Virus record (IMG/VR): IMGVR_UViG_3300047552_000775
Location: 1 to 40,332 of that record
Direction: 5' to 3' (one strand)
DNA length: 40,332 nt
From: a virus
Made by a program: the position numbers and the translations under genes. Shown piece after piece: positions 629 to 33,709 of the stretch. Every line of letters starts with the position of its first letter. Position 1 is the first letter of the stretch. The notes under the pieces were generated by a model. That model had not been told where the DNA came from. It saw only the letters and a program-made list of their open reading frames with translations, and did no database searches.

Positions 629-1249
629 CTAAAACTCTATTCCTTTTCTCGGTCCTACACACGCTGTAAGTTTTTTGCCACAATGAGGGCAGAATTGAAA
701 TCTATAATTGAACTCGATTTTACAGGATTTACATCTTGTGTTGAAGGGGTGTCTAACACATTCTATTTTAGACATTAAATCTGAGATATCTTTTATTTTG
801 TTAAGCTTATCTCTGTCATATATACGTCCCGTAACAATTAAATTACAGCTCTTTTTCATTTGTAGAAGCCATTCAATCACAGCATCAAAATTCAATAAAT
901 TAAGCTGTAAAACCGGCAACAACTCATCTAAAACTATCAGGTCATAACTCTCGCACTGAATGGCTGACAATAGTAATTCCCAACCTTCCTGAGCCTCTAA
1001 AATATCTGCCGGAGTTTTGTTGCTCTCTAAAACAATTTTGTTTGAACCCGTTTGGATAACTTTAATTCCTAATTTTTCGCAAGTTTTTAATTCCCCATAC
1101 TCGCAACTGCCAACACCCTTTAAAAATTGTACTACTAAAATATTTAAACCCTGACCGTAGGCTCTCATTACCTTTCCTAAAGCTGACGTGGTTTTTCCGG
1201 ATCCATCACCATACCAGACATTGATGTAATGTTCTTTAGTTTCTGACAT
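629..1249 (-). CDS. CobA/CobO-like corrinoid adenosyltransferase with C-terminal zinc ribbon
   Basis: This 206-residue protein resembles ATP:corrinoid adenosyltransferases of the CobA/CobO/BtuR family, which transfer the adenosyl group of ATP to cobalt in cob(I)alamin. Visible features are a P-loop near residues 14-20 (GDGSGKTT), the following GLNILVVQFLKG strand, a LIVLDEL Walker B-type strand, the TGR turn and the VRHPF segment near the C-terminus. The usual GIEY ending is replaced by a zinc ribbon (CKSC then CPHCGKKL). The start is ATG at 1249 behind GAGAGG. Adenosylcobalamin could serve a class II ribonucleotide reductase, but none is in this window. An ATPase of this fold with another role is the main alternative. 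Confidence 0.75.
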   Translation of the reverse strand: MSETKEHYINVWYGDGSGKTTSALGKVMRAYGQGLNILVVQFLKGVGSCEYGELKTCEKLGIKVIQTGSNKIVLESNKTPADILEAQEGWELLLSAIQCESYDLIVLDELLPVLQLNLLNFDAVIEWLLQMKKSCNLIVTGRIYDRDKLNKIKDISDLMSKIECVRHPFNTRCKSCKIEFNYRFQFCPHCGKKLTACVGPRKGIEF

Positions 1250-6494: not shown

Positions 6495-6983
6495 TTAAAC
6501 TCCACACAAAATTGTAATCGAAACTTCCGCAATTAATTTTGGATCTTGTTCATTTTTTAAGTTATTACACAAAGAATTAATAGCTACTAATTCTTTATTT
6601 AGATCTACTTCAATAGAATCTAAATTACTCTTAAACTGATTGGGGATTTTAATATATTTGAAATCCTTGTAAAATTGATATTTCATTACATCCATTATTA
6701 ATGACAAGAATTGTTTAAAGAATGTTTTTAATTCTTTACCCGACATATAAACATCTTCTATTTTCTTAATAGCTTGGGCTCTATCTTTATTAATCAAATA
6801 ACCTAAAAGCTCAAACAAATCCTCATACCCGCAAACATTTAAAGCCTTTGTTACAGACTCAACAGTTAAAGTTTTTGAATACCCCAAGGCTGTTTCTAAC
6901 AATGAAAGCGCCTCCCTCATTCCGCCATCTGCCGTTTTTGCAAGATACTCCACAGCTTCCAAAGTATAAGTTTTTTTATTCAT
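6495..6983 (-). CDS. dnaX: Clamp-loader DnaX (gamma/tau), C-terminal part
   Basis: This 162-residue piece matches the part of DnaX that follows the ATPase core. It opens with EAVEYLAKTADGGMREALSL, equivalent to the sensor 2 segment (GGMRDALSLLD) of bacterial DnaX, and continues into the helical collar domain. The ATPase core lies in 7856-8383; the two are separated by a GIY-YIG gene. ATG at 6983 has GGAGG seven nt upstream, so this part may be translated on its own. If the intervening DNA is an intron instead, the two parts join in frame. There is no long tau-type extension. Confidence 0.8.
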   Translation of the reverse strand: MNKKTYTLEAVEYLAKTADGGMREALSLLETALGYSKTLTVESVTKALNVCGYEDLFELLGYLINKDRAQAIKKIEDVYMSGKELKTFFKQFLSLIMDVMKYQFYKDFKYIKIPNQFKSNLDSIEVDLNKELVAINSLCNNLKNEQDPKLIAEVSITILCGV

Positions 6984-7701
6984 GTATAATCCTCCAATTA
7001 AATCCACACGCTGTCTTATTTTTAGTACAAGCTTGACTAATTCCGGTTATTCCAGTAAGCTCTACGGCTTCTTTGATACTGGAATAAATAATGCCTGTTT
7101 CTACACACAATACTTTTTTACGATTCTGAGCAGGTTTTCCTAAATGAGCCTCACTCATTTTTATTTTTGTTTCTTCAGAATGTTTAAATTCACCAACTTT
7201 TCTACAACTTCTAAATAATCTAGGATCTTCTTTCGACAACCCTTTATTCCAAACAGGTTTATTGGATATTTTTCTATCAGCGTAAACTCCGTTAGCCCAA
7301 TGCTGCTTAACTGTAGATCTTATACGATCTTTAACAGAATTCGACATATTTAAGTTTAATTGTCTAAGTTTTTCTTTAGTTTTCTCACTAACGGTTCCTC
7401 CACAGATAGGTCCTAAATTATATGTTTCATTATCATCATAACCGCCCAAATAGTTAAGCCACTCTAGCTCTAGCTTATCCAACTCTTCAGAGGCGCATTC
7501 TTCTAAAATTTCAAACTTAAAGTTTTCTTCTCCGTATTTATTCCAGGCTCTTTGTAAATAACTATTTCTATGAATGTTTTTATTTAAAGAGTATCTATGG
7601 CTTCTTAATCTACTTTCGCAGTTCACACTCTGCCCTATATAGCATTTTCCGTTTAGCTTGTTAAAAATCCAATAAATACCGCAAATATTTTCTCTTACCA
7701 T
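6976..7701 (-). CDS. GIY-YIG homing endonuclease inside dnaX
   Basis: A 241-residue homing endonuclease of the I-TevI type. The GIY ... YIG catalytic core lies in the first 30 residues (CGIYWIFNK, then CYIGQ), with Arg and Glu further on (LEECASEELDKLELEWL). A NUMOD3-type segment (KHSEETKIKMSEAHLGK) and a NUMOD1-type C-terminus (VLCVETGIIYSSIKEAVEL) follow, both DNA-binding modules of homing enzymes. The start is ATG at 7701 behind AAGGA; the longer open frame would cross a structured RNA. The last codons overlap the start of the DnaX C-terminal gene, which puts that ribosome binding site inside this frame. Confidence 0.9.
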   Translation of the reverse strand: MVRENICGIYWIFNKLNGKCYIGQSVNCESRLRSHRYSLNKNIHRNSYLQRAWNKYGEENFKFEILEECASEELDKLELEWLNYLGGYDDNETYNLGPICGGTVSEKTKEKLRQLNLNMSNSVKDRIRSTVKQHWANGVYADRKISNKPVWNKGLSKEDPRLFRSCRKVGEFKHSEETKIKMSEAHLGKPAQNRKKVLCVETGIIYSSIKEAVELTGITGISQACTKNKTACGFNWRIIHE

Positions 7702-7855
7702 CTCAGTTCCTTCCAAATAAGAAACCCTCCCTTTGAATGTCAAACCACAAGGAGGGTTAATATGCTCTTGGCATATCAAATTCTTAGCAATACTATTTCC
7801 GTGGTTTGACATTCCTATTATAGGGTATTTATTCTTATTTGTAAAGTTAATGAGA
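7702..7855 (-). ncRNA. Pseudoknot-forming RNA upstream of the endonuclease gene (intron-like leader)
   Basis: Between the stop of DnaX-N and the endonuclease start lies a highly structured RNA. A 14-bp perfect helix joins 7801-7814 with 7735-7748. An 8-bp helix joins 7751-7758, inside the first, with 7723-7730, outside it, forming an H-type pseudoknot. A 6-bp hairpin (7760-7765 with 7771-7776) sits in the connecting loop. The pseudoknot ends about 14 nt before the AAGGA ribosome binding site. It could be part of a self-splicing intron or a translational control element for the endonuclease. I could not identify group I core elements with confidence. Confidence 0.5.
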
Positions 7856-8383
7856 TTACTCACAAACATATCCTTCTTTTTCTAAAACATGTATTAGCCT
7901 ACTCAATATTCCCTCAAAACTTATTTTTTGGAAATCAAACCGCTGACCTCTTGAAAATATAGTTTGTGGGAATTTTTGCGGGTCTGTGGTACAAAATAAA
8001 AATACCACATTCTTAGGAGGCTCCTCGAGCAGCTTTAAAAATGCACCAATGGCTCCAGCACTCAGCAAATGAGCCTCGTCTATTATATAAACCTTGTAGG
8101 GAACTCCTATAGGTTTTTTATAAGAATCTTCGATAATTCCTCTGACCTTATCTACGCCATTATTTGAAGCCGCATCCACTTCTATATAGGCATCGGGAAT
8201 ACCGTTCAGTTCATTGGCGAATATCCTCGCACTGGTAGTTTTACCAGTTCCGGCGCTTCCCAAAAACAAATATAAACTGTGTACTTTCTGTTCCTTAATC
8301 TGATTTTTTAATATTTTGATGATAAAAGATTGCTCTACCACATCTTCGAATCTCTGCGGACGATACAAATTGTATAAACTCAT
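7856..8383 (-). CDS. dnaX: Clamp-loader DnaX (gamma/tau), N-terminal ATPase part
   Basis: This 175-residue piece holds the AAA+ ATPase core of DnaX. It opens MSLYNLYRPQRFEDVVEQ as bacterial DnaX does, has Walker A at residues 42-50 (GSAGTGKTT), Walker B IIDEAHLL, the string FLKLLEEPP, and the arginine-finger region as SRGQRFDF (Cys of the usual SRC replaced by Gly). The four-cysteine zinc module of bacterial DnaX is missing. It stops at VLEKEGYVCE, exactly before the sensor 2 helix, which continues at 6983. ATG at 8383 follows AGGAG. Confidence 0.85.
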   Translation of the reverse strand: MSLYNLYRPQRFEDVVEQSFIIKILKNQIKEQKVHSLYLFLGSAGTGKTTSARIFANELNGIPDAYIEVDAASNNGVDKVRGIIEDSYKKPIGVPYKVYIIDEAHLLSAGAIGAFLKLLEEPPKNVVFLFCTTDPQKFPQTIFSRGQRFDFQKISFEGILSRLIHVLEKEGYVCE

Positions 8384-23415: not shown

Positions 23416-24387
23416 TTATACTAAAGAAATTATATTATCTACGTTACTTGAATATCTCATTGGATAAAATTTAATATCTTCTCCCATAGCTAATCTTATT
23501 AAATCTACAGCTTCTCCCAAAGTGTTGTATAGAGGATATTCTTTTAGGGTCTCTTTATACGCTAGTCTATTAGGAGCTATAGGATAACATTTTAAATTAA
23601 CTGCCTCTAACATAGCTATTCCGAACAATTCGTGAGTAGCGAAACTTATAACAGCTTTACTTTTTGCAAGTAGAGTATAATAGGCTCCCTTAGTCAAATT
23701 ATAATCCAAAGTTCTAATGAACTCAATATTTGAATATGGATATTTGTCTTTATACATTTCTTCAATGACTTTGAATAATTCCGGTTGTTTATCTTTTCCT
23801 AATCTATGAGGAAATATCACTATATTTTCTTTATTCTCGGTGTATGAGAGATACTCTGAGCATTCATAAACGGGATAATCTACTACAGTTATTTTACACA
23901 GTTCGCCACGTCTTTGAACTATTTCCTGTCTATGCAATTGAGATCCTACAAATACCTCATCGGCAATTTTGAGAATGGATTTTTCAAAGTCCTCTCCCCA
24001 TACTCCACATCCATTTTGCGTTATAAAGTCGTAGTCGTCGTATGTCCCAGCATGAAGCATTCCTTTAATTCTAAAATTCATACGAGCGTTATCTCTGATA
24101 TAGGCTAATGCCTCTACTCCTGGGAACCAGTAATCCATAAAGAATATACAATCAATATCATTATGAATCTTGAGCAATTCAATTATTTCTTGTAACTGTC
24201 CTAGTTTATAGCTATTAGTGTCATACACATCCAAAAACTGCCCGACTTTTATTTCTTTTAAATTAGTATCCCCGACAACTAAAACTTCTTTATCGAAACG
24301 CTTAAAGCTAGCCATAAACCAATCAAACCACTGATTGCTATACCGTCTATCTATTCTCTCTATTGGAACAAAAATAACTTTACCCAT
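23416..24387 (-). CDS. DUF3524/QTMAN-like glycosyltransferase
   Basis: A 323-residue GT-B glycosyltransferase. Two strings match the family of the tRNA-queuosine mannosyltransferase (DUF3524, also GTDC1): FPHRLGKDKQPE in place of the NHRWEHDKNPE motif, and ATHELFGIAMLEAVNLKCYP, very close to the family's HEFFGVAMLEAVYCGCYP, followed by PNRLAYKE. QTMAN adds mannose to the cyclopentenediol of queuosine in tRNA-Asp. Here the gene lies inside a 7-deazaguanine cluster and overlaps queE by 3 nt, so its acceptor may be a deazaguanine base in DNA or tRNA. The acceptor is not proven. Confidence 0.65.
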   Translation of the reverse strand: MGKVIFVPIERIDRRYSNQWFDWFMASFKRFDKEVLVVGDTNLKEIKVGQFLDVYDTNSYKLGQLQEIIELLKIHNDIDCIFFMDYWFPGVEALAYIRDNARMNFRIKGMLHAGTYDDYDFITQNGCGVWGEDFEKSILKIADEVFVGSQLHRQEIVQRRGELCKITVVDYPVYECSEYLSYTENKENIVIFPHRLGKDKQPELFKVIEEMYKDKYPYSNIEFIRTLDYNLTKGAYYTLLAKSKAVISFATHELFGIAMLEAVNLKCYPIAPNRLAYKETLKEYPLYNTLGEAVDLIRLAMGEDIKFYPMRYSSNVDNIISLV

Positions 24388-25037
24388 TATACGCCTCTCT
24401 TATTCGGATCCCAAATGTATTTGTGAAGTTGGAGCTGAAAAACAGCCTTTAAATCATTCTCTTTGATAAAATCAACTACTAACGGCGGGTAAAAACCAAA
24501 TACAGGACTGATATACGGAACAGCCTCTGTTTTAATACTTTCTATAATAGTTTTTGCGTAATATAAATCTTCTTCACTTCCTACTACAAATTTAATAACG
24601 TCTAAATTATTTAGCAGTTTTAAATTTTCAAAATTATTATTTTTGTGCATTCCGCTAGAGGGACATTTTATATCCATAGTAAAGAAAAATTTACTTCTCC
24701 TCAATTTATACCTTAATTCTATAAACTTAGCTAAAAATACACTTCCATTAGTTTCTATGTTGGTGAATTTATCAGCTATCATTAAATCAGATATTAATTT
24801 TTCCACTTCTTGGTGAATTAATGGCTCTCCGCCTGTCAAAGTAACGCAGTCTGTCTTTATCTTACTTACAATATCCTCACTAGACATTAGAGTATATTCC
24901 TCTTCTGTTTGAGCATATTTAGTATCACAATAACTACATCTAAGGTTACATCCCGCCAACCTGATAAAAGTAGTTAAATACCCCGTTCTTTTACCCTCAC
25001 CCTCTATGCTGGAAAATATTTCATTAACTTTTAGCAT
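24387..25037 (-). CDS. queE: 7-carboxy-7-deazaguanine synthase (radical SAM)
   Basis: A 216-residue QueE, the radical SAM enzyme that rearranges 6-carboxytetrahydropterin to 7-carboxy-7-deazaguanine. The Fe-S motif C-x3-C-x2-C is CNLRCSYC, preceded by EIFSSIEGEGKRTG and FIRLAG, the family's typical opening. TLTGGEPL is the SAM-binding glycine-rich motif. Length and order are normal. It overlaps QueD by 7 nt and the glycosyltransferase by 3 nt, so the three are translationally coupled. ATG start at 25037. Confidence 0.95.
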   Translation of the reverse strand: MLKVNEIFSSIEGEGKRTGYLTTFIRLAGCNLRCSYCDTKYAQTEEEYTLMSSEDIVSKIKTDCVTLTGGEPLIHQEVEKLISDLMIADKFTNIETNGSVFLAKFIELRYKLRRSKFFFTMDIKCPSSGMHKNNNFENLKLLNNLDVIKFVVGSEEDLYYAKTIIESIKTEAVPYISPVFGFYPPLVVDFIKENDLKAVFQLQLHKYIWDPNKRGV

Positions 25038-25414
25038 TCTGAATACTCCGCTTCGTTATTAACTGATTCTACGACTACAACCTTTGAGCATTTTATAAGG
25101 GGCTGCTCATTGTATTGTATAACCAACTCTCTATTGATAGATTCATAAACCCATTTAGCTATGTTCTCAGCAGTAGGGTTAAAATTTAACTCCTCGTTCA
25201 AATTTTTATGGTCTAATTTACTATGGATTCTAGCTTGGAATATATCTTTAAGTCTTCCAAAATCCATTATCATACTATTTCTGTCTAAACAAGGGGAAGA
25301 CAGTTCTACAATTATGGACCAATTATGCCCGTGACAATTTTTGCACTTGCTTTCGTAATCCAAATCTAATTTATGAGCCCCAGCTACTTCAAAGGTTCTT
25401 CTAATTTTAAACAT
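25031..25414 (-). CDS. queD: 6-carboxytetrahydropterin synthase
   Basis: A 127-residue QueD that converts dihydroneopterin triphosphate to 6-carboxytetrahydropterin. Zinc ligands are His14, His28 and His30 (CHGH), with Cys24 in the catalytic position (CxxxHGH). DFGRLKD, LDHKNLNE and TAENIAKWVYE match conserved parts in order. It overlaps the end of dpdA by 8 nt and the start of queE by 7 nt. ATG start at 25414, with GGAGAG upstream. Confidence 0.95.
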   Translation of the reverse strand: MFKIRRTFEVAGAHKLDLDYESKCKNCHGHNWSIIVELSSPCLDRNSMIMDFGRLKDIFQARIHSKLDHKNLNEELNFNPTAENIAKWVYESINRELVIQYNEQPLIKCSKVVVVESVNNEAEYSEC

Positions 25415-26342
25415 TTACACTCTCCATTATAAATCTTGCCTTGTTACCTAAATCTGAATTATATTTAAACTTTTTAGATCTGTTTATGTAATACTCAATA
25501 TCAAACTTTAATCTCTCTTTGTAATCTTTTCTTAATTTATCTAAATCAAATCCCAATGAATTTACATATTTTTCAAGCCCTTCGTATATCGCCTTAGGCA
25601 TGTTACACACGTGTGCAGGATCTTTTATCCTAGTATCACTCACCACGTAACCTCCCTTAGGAGTTATAATAGATCCCATTGTTGAATTTTGAATCCAAGT
25701 AGAAGAGTCACAGCTGTAAAAAGGGTATTTTTCCAGCAGCTTGAAGGTAGTTACCCCAAAGGCGTGAACCTTAACATTTGGATTTTTACTACTGTTCACA
25801 ACCCTTCTAGCCCTCTCTAAATGAACGTCTCTATCTCTATTTGACCTGATACTTAACCCCCCGAAACCGATATAATCTAAATACTTTCCGTTAAATTTAG
25901 TGTTAAGAATTCTGTCTAAATATTTTAAATCCTCACCTAAGTGAAATACAGGAAGTAATCTATCTGGGCAATTAACTTTATCAAGCATATAAACGAAGTT
26001 TTCCCAACTTTTTTCTGCGGATTCTGTAACGTGTTCTTTTGTTCTAGGCATTCCAAAAATTCCAGGAATGTGGTCTAATTGAACAAAGTAAACATCCGAT
26101 GATGTAAAAGAATTAATATAATCGATGTATTCGTCTACGTTAATCATTTTATGCTTAGTATGAGCTGTAAAAGCTCCACTATCAATCAAAAGTTTATTGT
26201 GCTTACTGAGGTATTTATTTTTCCAAGATTCAATGTCCTTTCTCTCAGTGTACTGACTATACAGCTTGTGCCCGCCTTTTTTGTAAATATGTTCAATGGC
26301 TTCTTCGCATTGTTTACCAGCAAAATATAAAACGATACTCAT
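25407..26342 (-). CDS. dpdA: DpdA-like DNA 7-deazaguanine transglycosylase
   Basis: A 311-residue protein of the TGT/DpdA superfamily, which exchanges guanine in DNA for a 7-deazaguanine base. The N-terminal strand LLIDSGAFTAHT contains the presumed catalytic Asp (about 54), and FVQLDHIPG and YIGFGGLSIRSN follow the TIM-barrel order. Near the C-terminus VHAFGVTTFKLLEKYPFYSCDSS is a hallmark of phage DpdA proteins. With FolE, QueD and QueE nearby it predicts modified DNA. QueC is not in this window and would be needed for preQ0. ATG at 26342 overlaps the GIY-YIG stop. Confidence 0.88.
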   Translation of the reverse strand: MSIVLYFAGKQCEEAIEHIYKKGGHKLYSQYTERKDIESWKNKYLSKHNKLLIDSGAFTAHTKHKMINVDEYIDYINSFTSSDVYFVQLDHIPGIFGMPRTKEHVTESAEKSWENFVYMLDKVNCPDRLLPVFHLGEDLKYLDRILNTKFNGKYLDYIGFGGLSIRSNRDRDVHLERARRVVNSSKNPNVKVHAFGVTTFKLLEKYPFYSCDSSTWIQNSTMGSIITPKGGYVVSDTRIKDPAHVCNMPKAIYEGLEKYVNSLGFDLDKLRKDYKERLKFDIEYYINRSKKFKYNSDLGNKARFIMESVNV

Positions 26343-26977
26343 AAAGACTCCTTTTTATCATACATTTTAGCTACTCTGGGGTCTTCTTTTGTTAAACCCT
26401 TATTCCAAGGAATTCTACCTTTATGAGAATCGCTCATTTTTTTTCTTGTTTCTTCGGAATGTTTTAATCCCAATGTTGGAGATTTTCTACCTTTTAAGGT
26501 ATTACTTATTTTTTGTCTAACCTCTTCTGGAATAATATTACCTAATAAGCTTATACTATTAGCTTGTCCTATTTTTAACTTAGTTTCCGCAGATAGCGGC
26601 TTTCCTAATCTTTTGTATTTATTAGCTCTGCCTATTTTTAACTTTACTTCTTCACTTATACTGCCTCCAGTAATACTTCCTTGATTATAAGTTTCTGAAT
26701 TATTATAGCCCCCAAAGTAATTCAACCATTCCAACTCTAAAGCATTTAATTCTTCGGGTTCGCATTCTTCCAAAACTTCAAATTTGAAGTTTTCGGAGCC
26801 ATACAAATTCCAAGCTGATTGTAGATGCGGATTAGAATGTTTATTGCAACTTAACATTATTTTATGGTCTTTAAATCTTTTATTACAATTTTTACTCTGC
26901 CCAATGTAGCATTTTCCATCGAACTTGTTAAAAATCCAATAAATTCCACATATTTTAGTTATATCTTCATGAAGCAT
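26339..26977 (-). CDS. GIY-YIG homing endonuclease (free-standing)
   Basis: A 212-residue homing endonuclease closely related to the one inside dnaX. The catalytic GIYWIFNK ... CYIGQ lies at residues 12-29 and the Glu-rich LEECEPEELNALELEWLNY after it. The rest has three NUMOD3-type repeats (KLKIGRANK, KLKIGQANS, KKMSDSHKG), DNA-binding units of homing enzymes. It overlaps the last 11 nt of the DNA polymerase gene but does not disrupt it, so it appears free-standing. Start ATG 26977. Confidence 0.9.
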   Translation of the reverse strand: MLHEDITKICGIYWIFNKFDGKCYIGQSKNCNKRFKDHKIMLSCNKHSNPHLQSAWNLYGSENFKFEVLEECEPEELNALELEWLNYFGGYNNSETYNQGSITGGSISEEVKLKIGRANKYKRLGKPLSAETKLKIGQANSISLLGNIIPEEVRQKISNTLKGRKSPTLGLKHSEETRKKMSDSHKGRIPWNKGLTKEDPRVAKMYDKKESL

Positions 26978-30110: not shown

Positions 30111-31520
30111 CTAAAAATTAATTATACTGTATCTTTCATCATTTAAAGTTTTAAGCATTGTCTGCTCAGGTGTTTCCAAACCTCCTAATACACATTTTAA
30201 AACATTAGGCGAGAACCCTGACACCAAAGCTGTTCCAGCTGTTCCAATCTGAACAGGATAATTGGATGTACTTCTGCTAGCCAGATTCCAAAATACAATT
30301 TGAGGTCTTTTATAGCCGGCGGAGGTAAACCTTCTATCTATATACTCGAAGTTAGTCGTAGAGTTATTATCACAGGCTCTGTCAAACTCCATATCCGATA
30401 ATATAAGGACTTTCGATGGTAAATCCTCTTGAGATAAATTATCTCTAACAGCCGTATCTAAAATAAGTTCAAATACTCTTTTCAAATCCGTATTAGCTAC
30501 CTCTCCGGTATTGACTTGTTCAATTCTATCACAAACATTTCCTTTTAAAGTTTGTAATTTCGGGTTACGGCTAAATGTTAAGAAGTTATCTTTAAATGCG
30601 CCGCCCATTCTCTCAGAAACATATATTCCCAGCGCTAAACAAACATCTATAGCTCTCACCTTTCCGGATACTTCTGTAGTCATGCTCGCCGATGTATCAC
30701 ATACCGGAAGTATATTTTCAATATTGCCTTTTAGCAAATCTGGAAGATTCTTCCACTGAGCATCGATAGCCTTTCTGTTTGAAGAATACTTATTGCGCAT
30801 AAATTCACACACTATATCGTGAGGAAATATAGATTTAGCATTTATCTTAACTTCGCCATTATTTGCTTTTTCTATAAATTTATTAAATCTGCTTTCGTCA
30901 TGCTTTTTAAAAGCGCCTCTATAGTTTTTAAAGGCGCAGCTAGGAACGTGGCTATAGTTTATGCCAGCCCATTCGTTATCGCACATTTTGTTTTCCACTA
31001 CTTCTGTAGCCTGTACAATAAGCTGTCTATAGTATTTCAAACTCATTTTAAAGTGACGTCTAAAGCCATCTCCAAAATTATCATATTGCTTTTTACGAGG
31101 CATCCACTTACCCACTAAACCATCTTTGGCTTTTAGTTTTGTATATAAATATTCGTACACTTTTGGATTTTTAATGCTGAACAAACTATCAACTCTACTG
31201 AAAAACGGAATATTTTCAATATTATTTAAAGCTATTTCAGGATGATTATTCCATAACCAACCCAAACCTACTCTAAAAAATCTTCTTTCTCCGGCTCCTT
31301 CTCGAACATCACCCGCCCAGAATAGCAATCTTAAAGTTAGTTCTTTGTTAGTATTATAAGCCAAACTAAACTTTGAAATAATTTGAGCTTCTGTAAGTTG
31401 TCTCGAAGCTCCTGCTAAACTAAATAAATCCAATACCGGATTCAAAGTAGTTGAGTTGGTTACGGCGCCATTTTCTGTACGGCTTTCTCTCCTAGTGATA
31501 CCTTTTAATAATTTGCTCAT
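30111..31520 (-). CDS. DUF2828 protein, Ro60-like helical repeats plus vWA domain
   Basis: A 469-residue protein with an N-terminal helical-repeat half (LTLRLLFWAGDVREGAGERRF) and a C-terminal von Willebrand A domain from about residue 270. The metal-dependent adhesion motif is DTSASM at 275-280, with TDL and LILSDMEFD completing it. The layout matches DUF2828 and is analogous to Ro60/Rsr proteins, ring-shaped RNA chaperones that bind misfolded RNAs and tRNA-like Y RNAs. It starts directly after the permuted tRNA region, with GAGG nine nt upstream, so both may be on one transcript and work together. The RNA partner is unproven. Confidence 0.75.
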   Translation of the reverse strand: MSKLLKGITRRESRTENGAVTNSTTLNPVLDLFSLAGASRQLTEAQIISKFSLAYNTNKELTLRLLFWAGDVREGAGERRFFRVGLGWLWNNHPEIALNNIENIPFFSRVDSLFSIKNPKVYEYLYTKLKAKDGLVGKWMPRKKQYDNFGDGFRRHFKMSLKYYRQLIVQATEVVENKMCDNEWAGINYSHVPSCAFKNYRGAFKKHDESRFNKFIEKANNGEVKINAKSIFPHDIVCEFMRNKYSSNRKAIDAQWKNLPDLLKGNIENILPVCDTSASMTTEVSGKVRAIDVCLALGIYVSERMGGAFKDNFLTFSRNPKLQTLKGNVCDRIEQVNTGEVANTDLKRVFELILDTAVRDNLSQEDLPSKVLILSDMEFDRACDNNSTTNFEYIDRRFTSAGYKRPQIVFWNLASRSTSNYPVQIGTAGTALVSGFSPNVLKCVLGGLETPEQTMLKTLNDERYSIINF

Positions 31521-31574
31521 TTGTATATCCTCTCTTAATATGCTCCAGACTACTGTTTATCGCTTCACCGATTT

Positions 31575-31596
31575 ATTACTTGCTGTAAGTAATCCT
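31575..31596 (-). repeat. Solo copy of the flanking element, hairpin form
   Basis: On the minus strand this copy reads AGGATTACTTACAGC, matching the consensus of the strand that opens each permuted-tRNA unit (RRRATnn then CAGC). Unlike the others it has no 7-nt partner downstream. Instead it forms its own 7-bp hairpin (31575-31581 with 31587-31593) with loop ACAGC on the minus strand. It lies about 55 nt upstream of the DUF2828 start. It may be a remnant of a fifth unit or a 3'-end signal of the array. Confidence 0.45.
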
Positions 31597-31606
31597 AAAA
31601 TTTAAC

Positions 31607-31718
31607 AGAATGGCATTTTTTATATTTGCTCTACCAATTGAGCTAGATTCACTGTGGCGTAAATCATAGGAATCGAACCTATTACATAATATTTTTTTAT
31701 GTTTGCTGTTACCATTCT
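31607..31718 (-). repeat. Flanked unit C of the permuted-tRNA array
   Basis: Read on the minus strand, the unit begins with AGAATGG (31712-31718) followed by TAACAGC and ends with CCATTCT (31607-31613). These form a perfect 7-bp helix around the permuted tRNA. The helix differs from those of units A and B at several positions, with compensating changes. The unit is 112 nt, exactly 12 nt shorter than A and B, which are each 124 nt. The shortage lies between the D-arm and T-arm. Confidence 0.7.
31622..31692 (-). tRNA. Permuted tRNA C, 3' half before 5' half, CCA encoded
   Basis: In transcript order come the T-arm (ATAGG-TTCGATT-CCTAT, 31682-31666), the 3' acceptor strand GATTTAC, discriminator G, an encoded CCA, two linker bases, and then the 5' acceptor strand GTGAATC, TA, and the D-arm GCTC-AATTGGTA-GAGC (31643-31628). 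The acceptor strands make seven pairs with one G-U. The strands AATAT (31626-31622) and ATATT (31692-31688) could form an anticodon stem, but the bases between and around them are nearly all A and no loop with U33 can be drawn. It may be a degenerate copy or need an unknown rearrangement. Confidence 0.6.
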
Positions 31719-31731
31719 TATAAGTTTTTAC

Positions 31732-31855
31732 GGAATAGAATTTGTTTGTATACGGTGCTTTAGACCTCTAAGCTAACCCCCGTTATTCGGGGGTGTAGGA
31801 TTCGAACCTACGATACCCGGCTCCTAATGCAACAATAAAATGCTGTTACTATTCC
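31732..31855 (-). repeat. Flanked unit B of the permuted-tRNA array
   Basis: On the minus strand this 124-nt unit opens with GGAATAG (31849-31855) and TAACAGC and closes with CTATTCC (31732-31738), a perfect 7-bp helix. Inside, TTGTT just before the tRNA 3' half can pair with AACAA just after the 5' half, giving a second short helix next to the presumed splice points. About 11-12 nt (upstream) and 14 nt (downstream) separate the 7-bp helix and CAGC from the tRNA sequence. These distances are the same in unit A. Confidence 0.75.
31753..31830 (-). tRNA. Permuted tRNA B, predicted anticodon UAG
   Basis: Transcript order is: GC, loop ATTAGGA, stem GCCGG, variable GTATC, T-arm GTAGG-TTCGAAT-CCTAC (31811-31795), 3' acceptor ACCCCCG, A73, linker ATAA, 5' acceptor CGGGGGT, TA, D-arm GCTT-AGAGGTCTA-AAGC, A26, CCG. 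The acceptor pairs perfectly over seven bases. Joining the final CCG (31755-31753) to the initial GC (31830-31829) restores a perfect anticodon stem CCGGC/GCCGG with loop ATTAGGA, anticodon UAG (codon CUA, Leu). The body has a short variable region and a C1-G72 pair, which are not typical of bacterial tRNA-Leu, so the amino acid is uncertain. CCA is not encoded. Confidence 0.8.
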
Positions 31856-31872
31856 TATAATATTGTAATTTC

Positions 31873-31942
31873 AGAATGCCTTTTTATTCGTATTCTTTTG
31901 CTTGAAAAAAGTTTTTGAATTTATTTTCGCTGCAAGCATTCT
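31873..31942 (-). repeat. Flanked unit D, remnant without a tRNA body
   Basis: This 70-nt unit lies between A and B. On the minus strand it opens with AGAATGC (31936-31942) and TTGCAGC and closes with GCATTCT (31873-31879), again a perfect 7-bp helix. The interior is A-rich and lacks acceptor and D-arm sequences. A hairpin CTTTT-TTCAAGC-AAAAG (31911-31895) has the shape and TTCAA loop of a decayed T-arm. It is best read as a degenerated fourth unit. Confidence 0.5.
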
Positions 31943-31962
31943 TATATTTTCTTAAAATAATC

Positions 31963-32086
31963 AGGATATCTTTTTTTGCTTATCTCTACCAATTGAGTTA
32001 CATACATCTTTCGACATACGGCTGGACTCGAACCAACATCTTTTAATTTTCAGTTAAAATGCAAATTTAGTTGCTGCAAATATCCT
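31963..32086 (-). repeat. Flanked unit A of the permuted-tRNA array
   Basis: On the minus strand this unit opens with AGGATAT (32080-32086), preceded by TATA and followed by TTGCAGC, and closes with ATATCCT (31963-31969), forming a perfect 7-bp helix. It is 124 nt, the same as unit B. TTTGC before the tRNA 3' half can pair with GCAAA after the 5' half, a second short helix in the same place as in unit B but with a different sequence. It starts three nt after the stop of the DUF932 gene region, so the array is probably co-transcribed. Confidence 0.75.
31982..32060 (-). tRNA. Permuted tRNA A, predicted tRNA-Phe (GAA)
   Basis: Transcript order is: anticodon arm TTTAA-CTGAAAA-TTAAA (32058-32042), anticodon GAA with U33 and A37 as in tRNA-Phe; variable AGAT; T-arm GTTGG-TTCGAGT-CCAGC (32037-32021); 3' acceptor CGTATGT; C73; linker GAAAG; 5' acceptor ATGTATG; TA; D-arm ACTC-AATTGGTA-GAGA (31998-31983). 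All seven acceptor pairs form, three of them G-U. In the D-stem, A10 faces A25. The whole anticodon arm is in the upstream piece, so the junction lies near position 24-26, not inside the anticodon loop. CCA is not encoded. Confidence 0.75.
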
Positions 32087-32094
32087 TATAGTTT

Positions 32095-33075
32095 TTAGTC
32101 TACTAAACTCAACGCTACCGATAAGGCTTTTCTATTAAGCCTATCTCCATCTCCAAACCATAGATTTTGATATCTCGAATCTTCGGAAGTTTTTTCAGTA
32201 CCCCTGACATGTTGGATATAACCTTGAGCCGCATTGTAAGCTCCCCAAAGTGTACCTCTTGCAGGATCTAATTCAAAAATTTCCTCGACACGATTTAACA
32301 ACCTTGTTCTGGCTTGTTCTATTTGTTCCTTCTCATCTTCCTCCGTACTTTCAAACATCTTATCCAACGATTTTGTGGAAAAAACTTGCTGAACATAATT
32401 TTCTAAATCAGCGCTATTAATATCTGTGTAGTACAAGCACTTATAATGCTCTACTGTGGTTTTAAAATTAATATTTACCAAATCCATTATATTTCTTAAT
32501 TCTTGAAGGTTATCTAATATTTTAGTTGTATGCCGTACTCTTATTAGCTGGCTCAACTCGTGTTCCTCAGCCATTTTAAGAGTATTGTTGCAAACCGCCC
32601 TAACAGGAGTAAATCCTACCCTTGCCGATGTTGTACCATCGTGAGAATTAGATAAAAGAATAAACCTTTCAACCTCATCCCCCTCACAAACTTGTAAGTT
32701 GGCATCTTTTATCTTAGCGAGTATGAATACCTTCTTACCGCTAAATAAACAACCGGCTGTTTCTAATGAAACTAATCCCGATTCTAAGTAAGGCTGAAAC
32801 CAATCAAAAGCTTCTACATTTTGAAGGGGTCTGTAATTACTTCCGACAACTCCTAAAATATGTTTTTTATCGTTCAACATTCTATAAGCGGCTTTACTAG
32901 GAACTTTAATATTGTCAGGTGTGTATAAATCATCCAATTCTACATTCCAATTTAAACCCGCTAGTTTTATGCCCTCTTCGATTGAAGGAGCCTCTTCAAC
33001 TACAGTTCCAAATTTATGCCAGGGACGTTTTTTAACACTAAAAAAGGAGTTATTATCCTCAAAACCGTGAGCCAT
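32095..33075 (-). CDS. DUF932 / TIGR03299-type phage protein
   Basis: A 326-residue protein that matches the DUF932 (phage/plasmid-like TIGR03299) family by its opening MAHGFEDNNSFFSVKKRPWH followed by KFGTVVEE, and by a later NSHDGTTSARVGFTPVRAVC with NTLKMA. This family is widespread in phages and plasmids, often near replication genes, and its function is not established. The protein is of normal length and intact. It precedes the permuted-tRNA region in the same direction, with only a few nt between its stop and unit A. ATG start 33075 with GGAGG upstream. Confidence 0.88.
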   Translation of the reverse strand: MAHGFEDNNSFFSVKKRPWHKFGTVVEEAPSIEEGIKLAGLNWNVELDDLYTPDNIKVPSKAAYRMLNDKKHILGVVGSNYRPLQNVEAFDWFQPYLESGLVSLETAGCLFSGKKVFILAKIKDANLQVCEGDEVERFILLSNSHDGTTSARVGFTPVRAVCNNTLKMAEEHELSQLIRVRHTTKILDNLQELRNIMDLVNINFKTTVEHYKCLYYTDINSADLENYVQQVFSTKSLDKMFESTEEDEKEQIEQARTRLLNRVEEIFELDPARGTLWGAYNAAQGYIQHVRGTEKTSEDSRYQNLWFGDGDRLNRKALSVALSLVD

Positions 33076-33076
33076 A

Positions 33077-33709
33077 TTATGCCGCCTCCAAATAATTAAA
33101 TTTCCAACCTTTGTGCTGTTTGTTAATTCCTTTTAAACATAAATGTATATTTTGTTGCTGAAGATTGTGTTCAATAGAAAAATGTTTCTGATTATTGCTT
33201 ACAAACTCCTCTCCAGTAGGAGAAATTGCTTTAAATTTTTTATTTGTTGTTTTATTGCTATTTTGAACTTTCGTAGTAACCCATCTAATATTTTCTTTTT
33301 CGTAGTTTCCATCGACATTTATTCTATCTATGGTTACGTTCTTTTCTCCTAATTCTTCACAAGCTTTTAAATAAGACTCATAGTGGTCTTGCATAAAAGG
33401 AATAAACTCTAAATACTCTGTGCAAGTTATTCCACGACCCCCATAGTATGGGTAGTGTAAATTCGCTATATTCAGGCATCTATTCTTCATACTAGCCCAT
33501 ATTGAATGAAATCTAGTACCCGACATATTATGATTACAACCACAAGATTTTACTTTTCCGGCAGTTAAGTCATTTATAGGAACTTCATGAGTATTTCCGC
33601 AATCGCACTTACATAACCATATTGTGCTTCTATGTCTAAATTTGTCGGTAGGCTCTAAAGCTACCAGTTTTCCAAATTTAAAACCAGTTATGTTTTTTGA
33701 CAGACCCAT
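33077..33709 (-). CDS. HNH-type homing endonuclease with zinc-binding N-terminus
   Basis: A 210-residue homing endonuclease closely related to that at 19777-20307. Shared features are the N-terminal FKFGKLVALEPT and CKCDCGNTHEV ... SCGC zinc ligands, the FHSIWASMKNRC string, YPYYGGRGITC, and NVTIDRINVDGNY followed by NIRWVTTK. The C-terminus is longer and carries extra basic residues. It stands first after the 33.77-kb promoter and just before the DUF932 gene. Free-standing; start ATG 33709 near GAGGAG. Confidence 0.82.
   Translation of the reverse strand: MGLSKNITGFKFGKLVALEPTDKFRHRSTIWLCKCDCGNTHEVPINDLTAGKVKSCGCNHNMSGTRFHSIWASMKNRCLNIANLHYPYYGGRGITCTEYLEFIPFMQDHYESYLKACEELGEKNVTIDRINVDGNYEKENIRWVTTKVQNSNKTTNKKFKAISPTGEEFVSNNQKHFSIEHNLQQQNIHLCLKGINKQHKGWKFNYLEAA

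What the first reader, a model, noticed from the sequence alone, without database searches (positions are those of the whole stretch)
31607..32086. A cluster of circularly permuted tRNA genes in a phage
Reading the minus strand, T-arms with intact TTCGA-type loops come before, not after, the matching D-arms. In three units the 3' acceptor strand and the following 5' acceptor strand are complementary over all seven positions (ACCCCCG/CGGGGGT; GATTTAC/GTGAATC with one G-U; CGTATGT/ATGTATG with three G-U), across linkers of only 4-5 nt. Two units give credible anticodon loops when ends are joined: CTGAAAA (GAA) and ATTAGGA (UAG) within a restored CCGGC/GCCGG stem. Permuted tRNA genes are, to my knowledge, established in some algae and archaea, with processing through a circular intermediate; I cannot check whether phage examples are already published. 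Ordinary tRNA finders would miss these genes.
Basis: partly seen in the sequence, partly recalled or inferred. Interest (0 to 1): 0.97.

Follow-up and report, generated by a model that had tools for sequence, protein, structure and literature searches.

The report
Phage Y RNA array mimicking tRNAs
The back-to-front tRNA pieces in this phage are real, but they are most likely the tRNA-mimicking halves of small "Y RNAs" made next to the gene for their Ro60-like carrier protein; what is unusual is that two of the three still carry a complete anticodon arm, which may let them act as tRNA decoys.

Summary
Three units on the minus strand (31607-32086) encode T-arm, 3' acceptor, short linker, 5' acceptor and D-arm, in that order; a descriptor for this order finds exactly these 3 on that strand against 0.24 expected. 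They are not lone tRNA genes. Each sits inside a 7-9 bp stem followed by an [A/G]CAGCA motif, and two plain units of the same kind lie between and after them. The array of five fills the gap upstream of a gene whose product has the Ro60 fold (Z 24). A covariance model built only from other phages finds the three at 74-96 bits. They are YrlA-like Y RNAs, whose tRNA-like module is known to be circularly permuted (PMC11472068).

Two things go beyond the published description that I could read. Across phages, about half of the 76 units I collected keep a complete anticodon arm, with the Ro-binding stem inserted in its 5' strand (window units 1 and 3 do). And relatives encode the same RNA both permuted and in normal tRNA order. 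Functional permuted tRNA genes look unlikely: some acceptor stems are closed by UUCG or GNRA tetraloops, and body and anticodon rarely agree. A Ro60-held tRNA decoy or tether is my preferred function, inferred only.

The parts
31959..32086 (-). Y-tRNA unit 1: Ro-type stem AGGATATTT/AGATATCCT, motif GCAGCA, anticodon arm with CTGAAAA loop (32058-32042), T-arm 32037-32021, 3' acceptor 32020-32014, C-GAAA-G cap, 5' acceptor 32007-32001, D-arm
   Evidence: R1 90.5 bits, E 8.4e-18, window not in model; descriptor; anticodon arm
31870..31942 (-). Unit 2: plain Y hairpin, stem AGAATGCTT/AGGCATTCT with GCAGCG, no tRNA-like module
   Evidence: 9-bp stem plus motif; fold z only -1.06; weaker than the other units
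31728..31855 (-). Y-tRNA unit 3: stem GGAATAG/CTATTCC, motif ACAGCA, split anticodon arm (31830-31817 with 31755-31753; loop ATTAGGA), T-arm 31811-31795, acceptor ACCCCCG/CGGGGGT across AATAA, D-arm
   Evidence: R1 74.4 bits, E 2.7e-14; RF02553 30.8 bits; fold z -2.6
31603..31718 (-). Y-tRNA unit 4: stem AGAATGGTA/TGCCATTCT, motif ACAGCA, T-arm, acceptor GATTTAC/GTGAATC across GCCACA, D-arm; no natural anticodon arm
   Evidence: R1 95.5 bits, E 6.8e-19; RF02553 full length 32 bits; fold z -5.0
31543..31595 (-). Unit 5: plain Y hairpin, stem GATTACT/AGTAGTC, motif ACAGCA, small inner hairpin
   Evidence: R1 15.1 bits, E 0.23 (not significant alone); stem plus motif
30111..31520 (-). Ro60-fold RNA-binding protein gene (Pfam DUF2828/DUF7788, PHROG 850), helical repeat domain plus vWA domain
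   Evidence: Pfam, PHROG 850 E 1e-127, AlphaFold2 pLDDT 86.7, Foldseek and VIA matches to Ro60
32095..33075 (-). DUF932 gene directly upstream of the array, same strand; flank only
   Evidence: Pfam DUF932 E 1e-46

Best explanation
The region is an array of five phage Y RNA units, encoded directly upstream of the gene for their Ro60-fold partner. Three of them (1, 3, 4) are YrlA-like. The basal stem plus [A/G]CAGCA motif is the Ro-binding part. The rest folds as a tRNA body whose chain ends lie at the Ro stem and whose acceptor end is closed by a short loop, so the gene reads T-arm, acceptor, D-arm. Inferred function: the Ro60-like protein holds these RNAs, and the exposed tRNA body, with a complete anticodon arm in units 1 and 3, engages proteins that recognise tRNA, either as a decoy for tRNA-cutting host defences or as a tether for an RNase such as PNPase. 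Shown here: array, structure, family, Ro60 fold, retained anticodon arms. Inferred: transcription, binding and function.
For: Covariance model R1, built from 36 permuted units of other phages with the window left out, matches the three units end to end at 95.5, 90.5 and 74.4 bits. Rfam YrlA matches units 4 and 3 at 32 and 30.8 bits. The stems covary: score 0.823 against at most 0.20 when partners are slid, 271 cells changed on both sides. The neighbouring gene's model matches Ro60 over its length (1yvp Z 24.2 over 404 residues, D. radiodurans Rsr Z 13.2; next unrelated rows Z 11 on the vWA domain only). 41 of 92 homologous loci carry an R1 match within the fetched flanks at E<0.01, all but one of 67 matches on the strand of the gene. 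In a Listeria phage, highly transcribed noncoding regions within 2 kb upstream of an Rsr-like gene were proposed to be Y RNAs (PMC12282133).
Against: None of the units reaches Rfam's gathering score for YrlA (69 bits), and sub-threshold YrlA matches also arise from tandem tRNAs in other loci and in control genomes. The protein is not matched by the Pfam TROVE model. Units 2 and 5 have weak individual support. No transcript, binding or phenotype data exist for this phage. The bacterial precedent binds PNPase, so the decoy role is one choice among several.
Confidence: 0.88

Rival explanations
1. True permuted tRNA genes: the transcript is cut at the Ro stems, ligated through the anticodon stem into a circle, opened at the acceptor by RNase P and tRNase Z and used in translation. 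The Y part would be a permuted intron.
For: Complete anticodon stems across the insertion in 48 of 76 units, 38 of them with U33 and R37, against 4.9 and 0.8 in shuffles. Five of 45 permuted linkers read N73-CCA, including window unit 4.
Against: Acceptor stems capped by UUCG or GNRA tetraloops, including window unit 1. Window unit 4 has CCA but no anticodon arm; units 1 and 3 have arms but no CCA. Body and anticodon isotype seldom agree: first-ranked isotype in 6 of 41, median rank 6 of 21; unit 3 is Pro-like with UAG. No splicing endonuclease gene noticed among the window proteins searched. ARAGORN accepts the rejoined units, but also most shuffled controls.
Confidence: 0.05
2. Ordinary tRNA genes damaged or interrupted by insertions, or tandem tRNAs read across their boundary.
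For: Tandem tRNAs do give YrlA-like sub-threshold matches. The window has two homing endonuclease types.
Against: 7/7 acceptor complementarity within each unit; unit 3's 5' acceptor does not pair with unit 4's 3' acceptor. No intact tRNA in the window. Same architecture with covariation in dozens of unrelated phages.
Confidence: 0.03
3. Y RNAs as identified, but the tRNA body tethers a host or phage ribonuclease (PNPase in D. radiodurans) to the Ro60-like ring for RNA turnover; the anticodon arm is only a structural relic. (This is a sub-version of the best explanation, so its confidence overlaps with it.)
For: This is the demonstrated role of bacterial Y RNA and Rsr (PMC8394870, PMC7790460). 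Anticodons are diverse and do not match bodies. Unit 4 and about half of all units lack the full arm.
Against: U33 and R37 are kept along with the stem, which plain scaffolding would not obviously require.
Confidence: 0.4

Closest known systems
Bacterial YrlA Y RNA (Rfam RF02553; Salmonella YrlA, PDB 6CU1)
   Same: Basal stem next to a Ro60 gene; tRNA-like module with T, D and acceptor arms; circularly permuted order
   Different: Rfam consensus leaves 3 unpaired nt between the Y stem and the 4-bp anticodon-stem remnant, so no anticodon loop; two of the three window units carry a full arm. Rfam gathering score not reached. Several units per locus; relatives also in tRNA order
Ro60 / Rsr (TROVE) proteins, including Ro60 of Thermus phage phiLo (PDB 9l5y)
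   Same: Full-length fold match, helical ring plus vWA domain with DxSxS motif
   Different: 11-15% identity; separate Pfam family DUF2828/DUF7788, no match to the TROVE model
Circularly permuted tRNA genes of algae and archaea
   Same: 3' half before 5' half with a short intervening sequence
   Different: Embedded in Ro-type stems, acceptor often closed by tetraloops, isotype of body and anticodon discordant
tmRNA tRNA-like domain
   Same: tRNA body whose anticodon stem is replaced or extended by another element; the L003 tRNA-order unit scores as tmRNA
   Different: No resume reading frame or SmpB context seen; Ro motif in the insert

Membership tests
YrlA-like Y RNA | Encoded beside a Ro60 orthologue | tested here: met
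   Array 23 nt upstream of a Ro60-fold gene, same strand
YrlA-like Y RNA | 5' and 3' ends pair in a basal stem with conserved Ro-side motif | tested here: met
   7-9 bp stems plus [A/G]CAGCA in three units; covarying stem in relatives
YrlA-like Y RNA | Circularly permuted tRNA-like module (T, acceptor, D) | tested here: met
YrlA-like Y RNA | Score above the Rfam RF02553 gathering threshold | tested here: not met
   32, 30.8 and 19.9 bits against 69; so not filed under RF02553 itself
YrlA-like Y RNA | Binds Ro60 | not testable with these tools
   Needs binding assay
Ro60 protein | Ro60 fold over the whole chain | tested here: met
   Z 24.2, 404 residues, rmsd 4.2
Ro60 protein | Matches Pfam TROVE (PF05731) | tested here: not met
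   No match; matches DUF2828 and DUF7788
Circularly permuted tRNA gene | 3' half precedes 5' half, arms complementary | tested here: met
Circularly permuted tRNA gene | Joining gives a complete tRNA of consistent identity | tested here: inconclusive
   ARAGORN positive for all three, but also for about three quarters of shuffled controls; unit 3 Pro-like body with UAG
Circularly permuted tRNA gene | BHB splice motif and circular intermediate | not tested
   No BHB scan run; the intermediate needs RNA

The most novel reading that the evidence does not exclude
A widespread, unrecognised class of phage "Y-tRNAs": Ro60-bound RNAs that carry whole tRNA bodies with intact anticodon arms of many isoacceptors, the Ro-binding stem being inserted in the 5' strand of the anticodon stem, and that occur in two circular permutants (Y-like and tRNA-like order), serving as decoys or sensors for tRNA-cutting antiphage defences.
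Probability: 0.3. Interest if true: 0.87.

Novelty: new variant of a known kind. Interest (0 to 1): 0.62.

Why it matters
Phage Ro60 and Y RNAs are known by annotation but have no established function. Intact anticodon arms on Ro60-held tRNA mimics suggest a concrete, testable role in protecting phage translation from anticodon nucleases. The two permutants of one RNA in the same phages are a clean natural case of RNA circular permutation. Copies annotated as tRNA-Ser or pseudo-tRNA in GenBank records would need reannotation, which affects counts of phage tRNAs.

Tried and rejected
Rfam at gathering threshold and ARAGORN: nothing. Rfam tRNA match at 32013-32083 (27.1 bits, below 29): unit 1's T-arm plus chance pairing. 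Sub-threshold YrlA matches alone were judged insufficient, since tandem tRNAs and control genomes ring too; hence the independent model R1. A first stem-motif scan with strict scoring missed most units. ARAGORN on rejoined units does not discriminate: 67 of 70 real against 47-57 shuffled. Isotype matching of bodies gave only weak agreement. Swapping D sides between units still gives 22.7 complete anticodon stems against 48 observed, because many share ACG; the slid-column control (0.404 against at most 0.123) is the better test. Literature: no paper in the held library describes anticodon-bearing or tRNA-order Y RNAs, but the key papers (Chen 2014, Wang 2018, Sim 2018 and 2020) are either not held (Chen 2014) or were not tried, so priority is unsettled.

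Full report
What is there. On the minus strand, between a DUF932 gene (32095-33075) and a gene at 30111-31520, lies a 574-bp gap holding five units. Each has a 7-9 bp stem and a [A/G]CAGC[A/G] motif just inside its 5' strand. Units 1, 3 and 4 contain, between the stem strands, a T-arm, a 3' acceptor strand, a 5-6 nt linker, a fully complementary 5' acceptor strand and a D-arm. Units 2 and 5 are plain hairpins. A descriptor for the permuted order, which ignores the outer stem, finds exactly these three on the minus strand, against 0.24 expected from local shuffles.

What it is. Three lines converge on Y RNAs. First, the downstream gene: Pfam DUF2828 and DUF7788, PHROG 850 "RNA-binding protein", annotated as Ro-like in mycobacteriophages. 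Its AlphaFold2 model (pLDDT 86.7) matches only Ro60 and TROVE structures in Foldseek at E<0.001, and Ro60 over 404 residues at Z 24.2 by VIA-align, against Z 11 for the best unrelated vWA domain. Pfam's TROVE model does not match, so this is a Ro60-fold protein outside the TROVE family model. Second, RNA families: Rfam YrlA matches unit 4 end to end and unit 3 in part, below its gathering score. Third, an independent model: 36 permuted units from other phages (alignment A3) show strong covariation (score 0.823; 0.20 or less when partners are slid), with the caveat that units were picked for paired outer stems and acceptors. The model built from them, R1, without the window, finds the three window units at 95.5, 90.5 and 74.4 bits, E from 7e-19 to 3e-14. 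In 92 loci, nearly all with homologues of the protein, R1 finds 67 matches in 41 loci, 66 on the strand of the gene; some are ordinary tRNAs.

The permutation itself is known. The crystal structure of Salmonella YrlA superposes on tRNA with a circular permutation (PMC11472068), and the YrlA domain is described as resembling the D, T and acceptor arms (PMC8394870). Phage Ro proteins and Y RNAs are mentioned in the literature (PMC7824862, PMC7765460, PMC12282133). From my own knowledge, Chen et al. 2014 reported likely Y RNAs beside Ro60 in many bacteria and phages; that paper could not be read here.

What is not in those descriptions. (a) Anticodon arms. I collected 76 units from IMG/VR and phage records, 45 permuted and 31 in tRNA order. 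The anticodon arm was not a criterion, except that one search pattern fixed ACG on the D side. In 48 units a 5-bp anticodon stem with at least 4 Watson-Crick pairs closes a 7-nt loop at the right distance from the T-arm, and 38 of these have U33 and also R37; within-unit shuffles give 4.9 (maximum 13) and 0.8 (maximum 3). Allowing long variable arms gives 41 units. The stem is usually split: the Ro-binding part is inserted in its 5' strand, most often between positions 29 and 30. Its pairs covary in permuted units (0.404; 0.123 or less slid) and in tRNA-order units (0.397; 0.237 or less). The Rfam YrlA consensus has no room for such a loop. Window unit 1 has a CTGAAAA loop on a stem that can form entirely on the T side, unit 3 has ATTAGGA on a split stem, and unit 4 has none. 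(b) tRNA-order units. In several phages the same RNA is encoded as 5' acceptor, D-arm, Ro hairpin closed by a 2-9 nt loop, anticodon loop, T-arm, 3' acceptor (covariation 0.753). Permuted and tRNA-order units share the insertion site and junction, for example AACGTA... with GCNNNNNNNGCCGT (L017 permuted, L105 tRNA order), and occur together in L004, L009 and L130. In Cronobacter phage S13 two are annotated as tRNA-Ser and tRNA-OTHER, in Aeromonas phage Ahp1 one as pseudo-tRNA.

How it probably works. Because the same body appears with its ends at either place, neither a free acceptor end nor free Y ends seems essential; what is kept is a tRNA body joined to a Ro-binding arm. Acceptor stems of permuted units are often closed by 4-nt loops (16 of 45), six of them UUCG or GNRA, including C-GAAA-G in window unit 1. 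That argues against routine opening by RNase P and tRNase Z. Five linkers read N73-CCA, among them window unit 4, which lacks an anticodon arm; I take these as traces of tRNA ancestry. Bodies match the isotype of their anticodon only weakly. So the RNAs mimic tRNA rather than decode. I favour a Ro60-held mimic that engages tRNA-binding proteins: as a decoy for anticodon nucleases, consistent with retained loops and with phage tRNAs countering such defences (titles and abstracts of PMC10264068 and PMC11555353), or as a tether for an RNase as in D. radiodurans. The Salmonella work already suggested the YrlA domain might inhibit a tRNA nuclease competitively (PMC7790460). I cannot decide between these.

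Limits. No expression or binding data; units 2 and 5 are weakly supported individually; units are partly redundant (70 clusters of 76); the main Y RNA papers were not readable, so novelty of points (a) and (b) is provisional.

Noticed in passing
L009:4895-5137; L012:1232-1345; L105:10101-10768: tRNA-order Y-tRNA units annotated as tRNA-Ser, tRNA-OTHER or pseudo-tRNA in GenBank records, or detected by the Rfam tRNA model with large inserts.
   Followed up: yes
L120, L130: Large arrays of permuted Y-tRNA units with bodies resembling different tRNAs, some with long variable arms (Tyr- or Leu-like), plus tRNA-order-like units.
   Followed up: partly
L009:5310-5592: Possible tmRNA-like gene (T-arm GTGTGGTTCGATTCCATAC, end GCGCCA) directly after the Y-tRNA units of Cronobacter phage S13.
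   Followed up: no
window 24387-26342: QueE-like radical SAM gene and a queuine tRNA-ribosyltransferase-like gene: probably 7-deazaguanine DNA modification, but a link to the tRNA mimics was not examined.
   Followed up: no
window 26339-26977, 6976-7869 and 33077-33709: GIY-YIG and HNH homing endonuclease genes, one of them just upstream of the DUF932 gene.
   Followed up: no
window 867-965 (+): Perfect 9-bp stem AGCCATTCA/TGAATGGCT with an ACAGCA motif, inside coding sequence; shuffles give about 3 such looser hits per strand, so possibly chance.
   Followed up: partly
L008:1883-1955, L052:4070-4144 and others, minus strand: Rfam families RF04354 and RF04351 (plastid UTR RNAs) match the reverse complement of ordinary tRNAs; these families may contain antisense tRNA sequence.
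   Followed up: no
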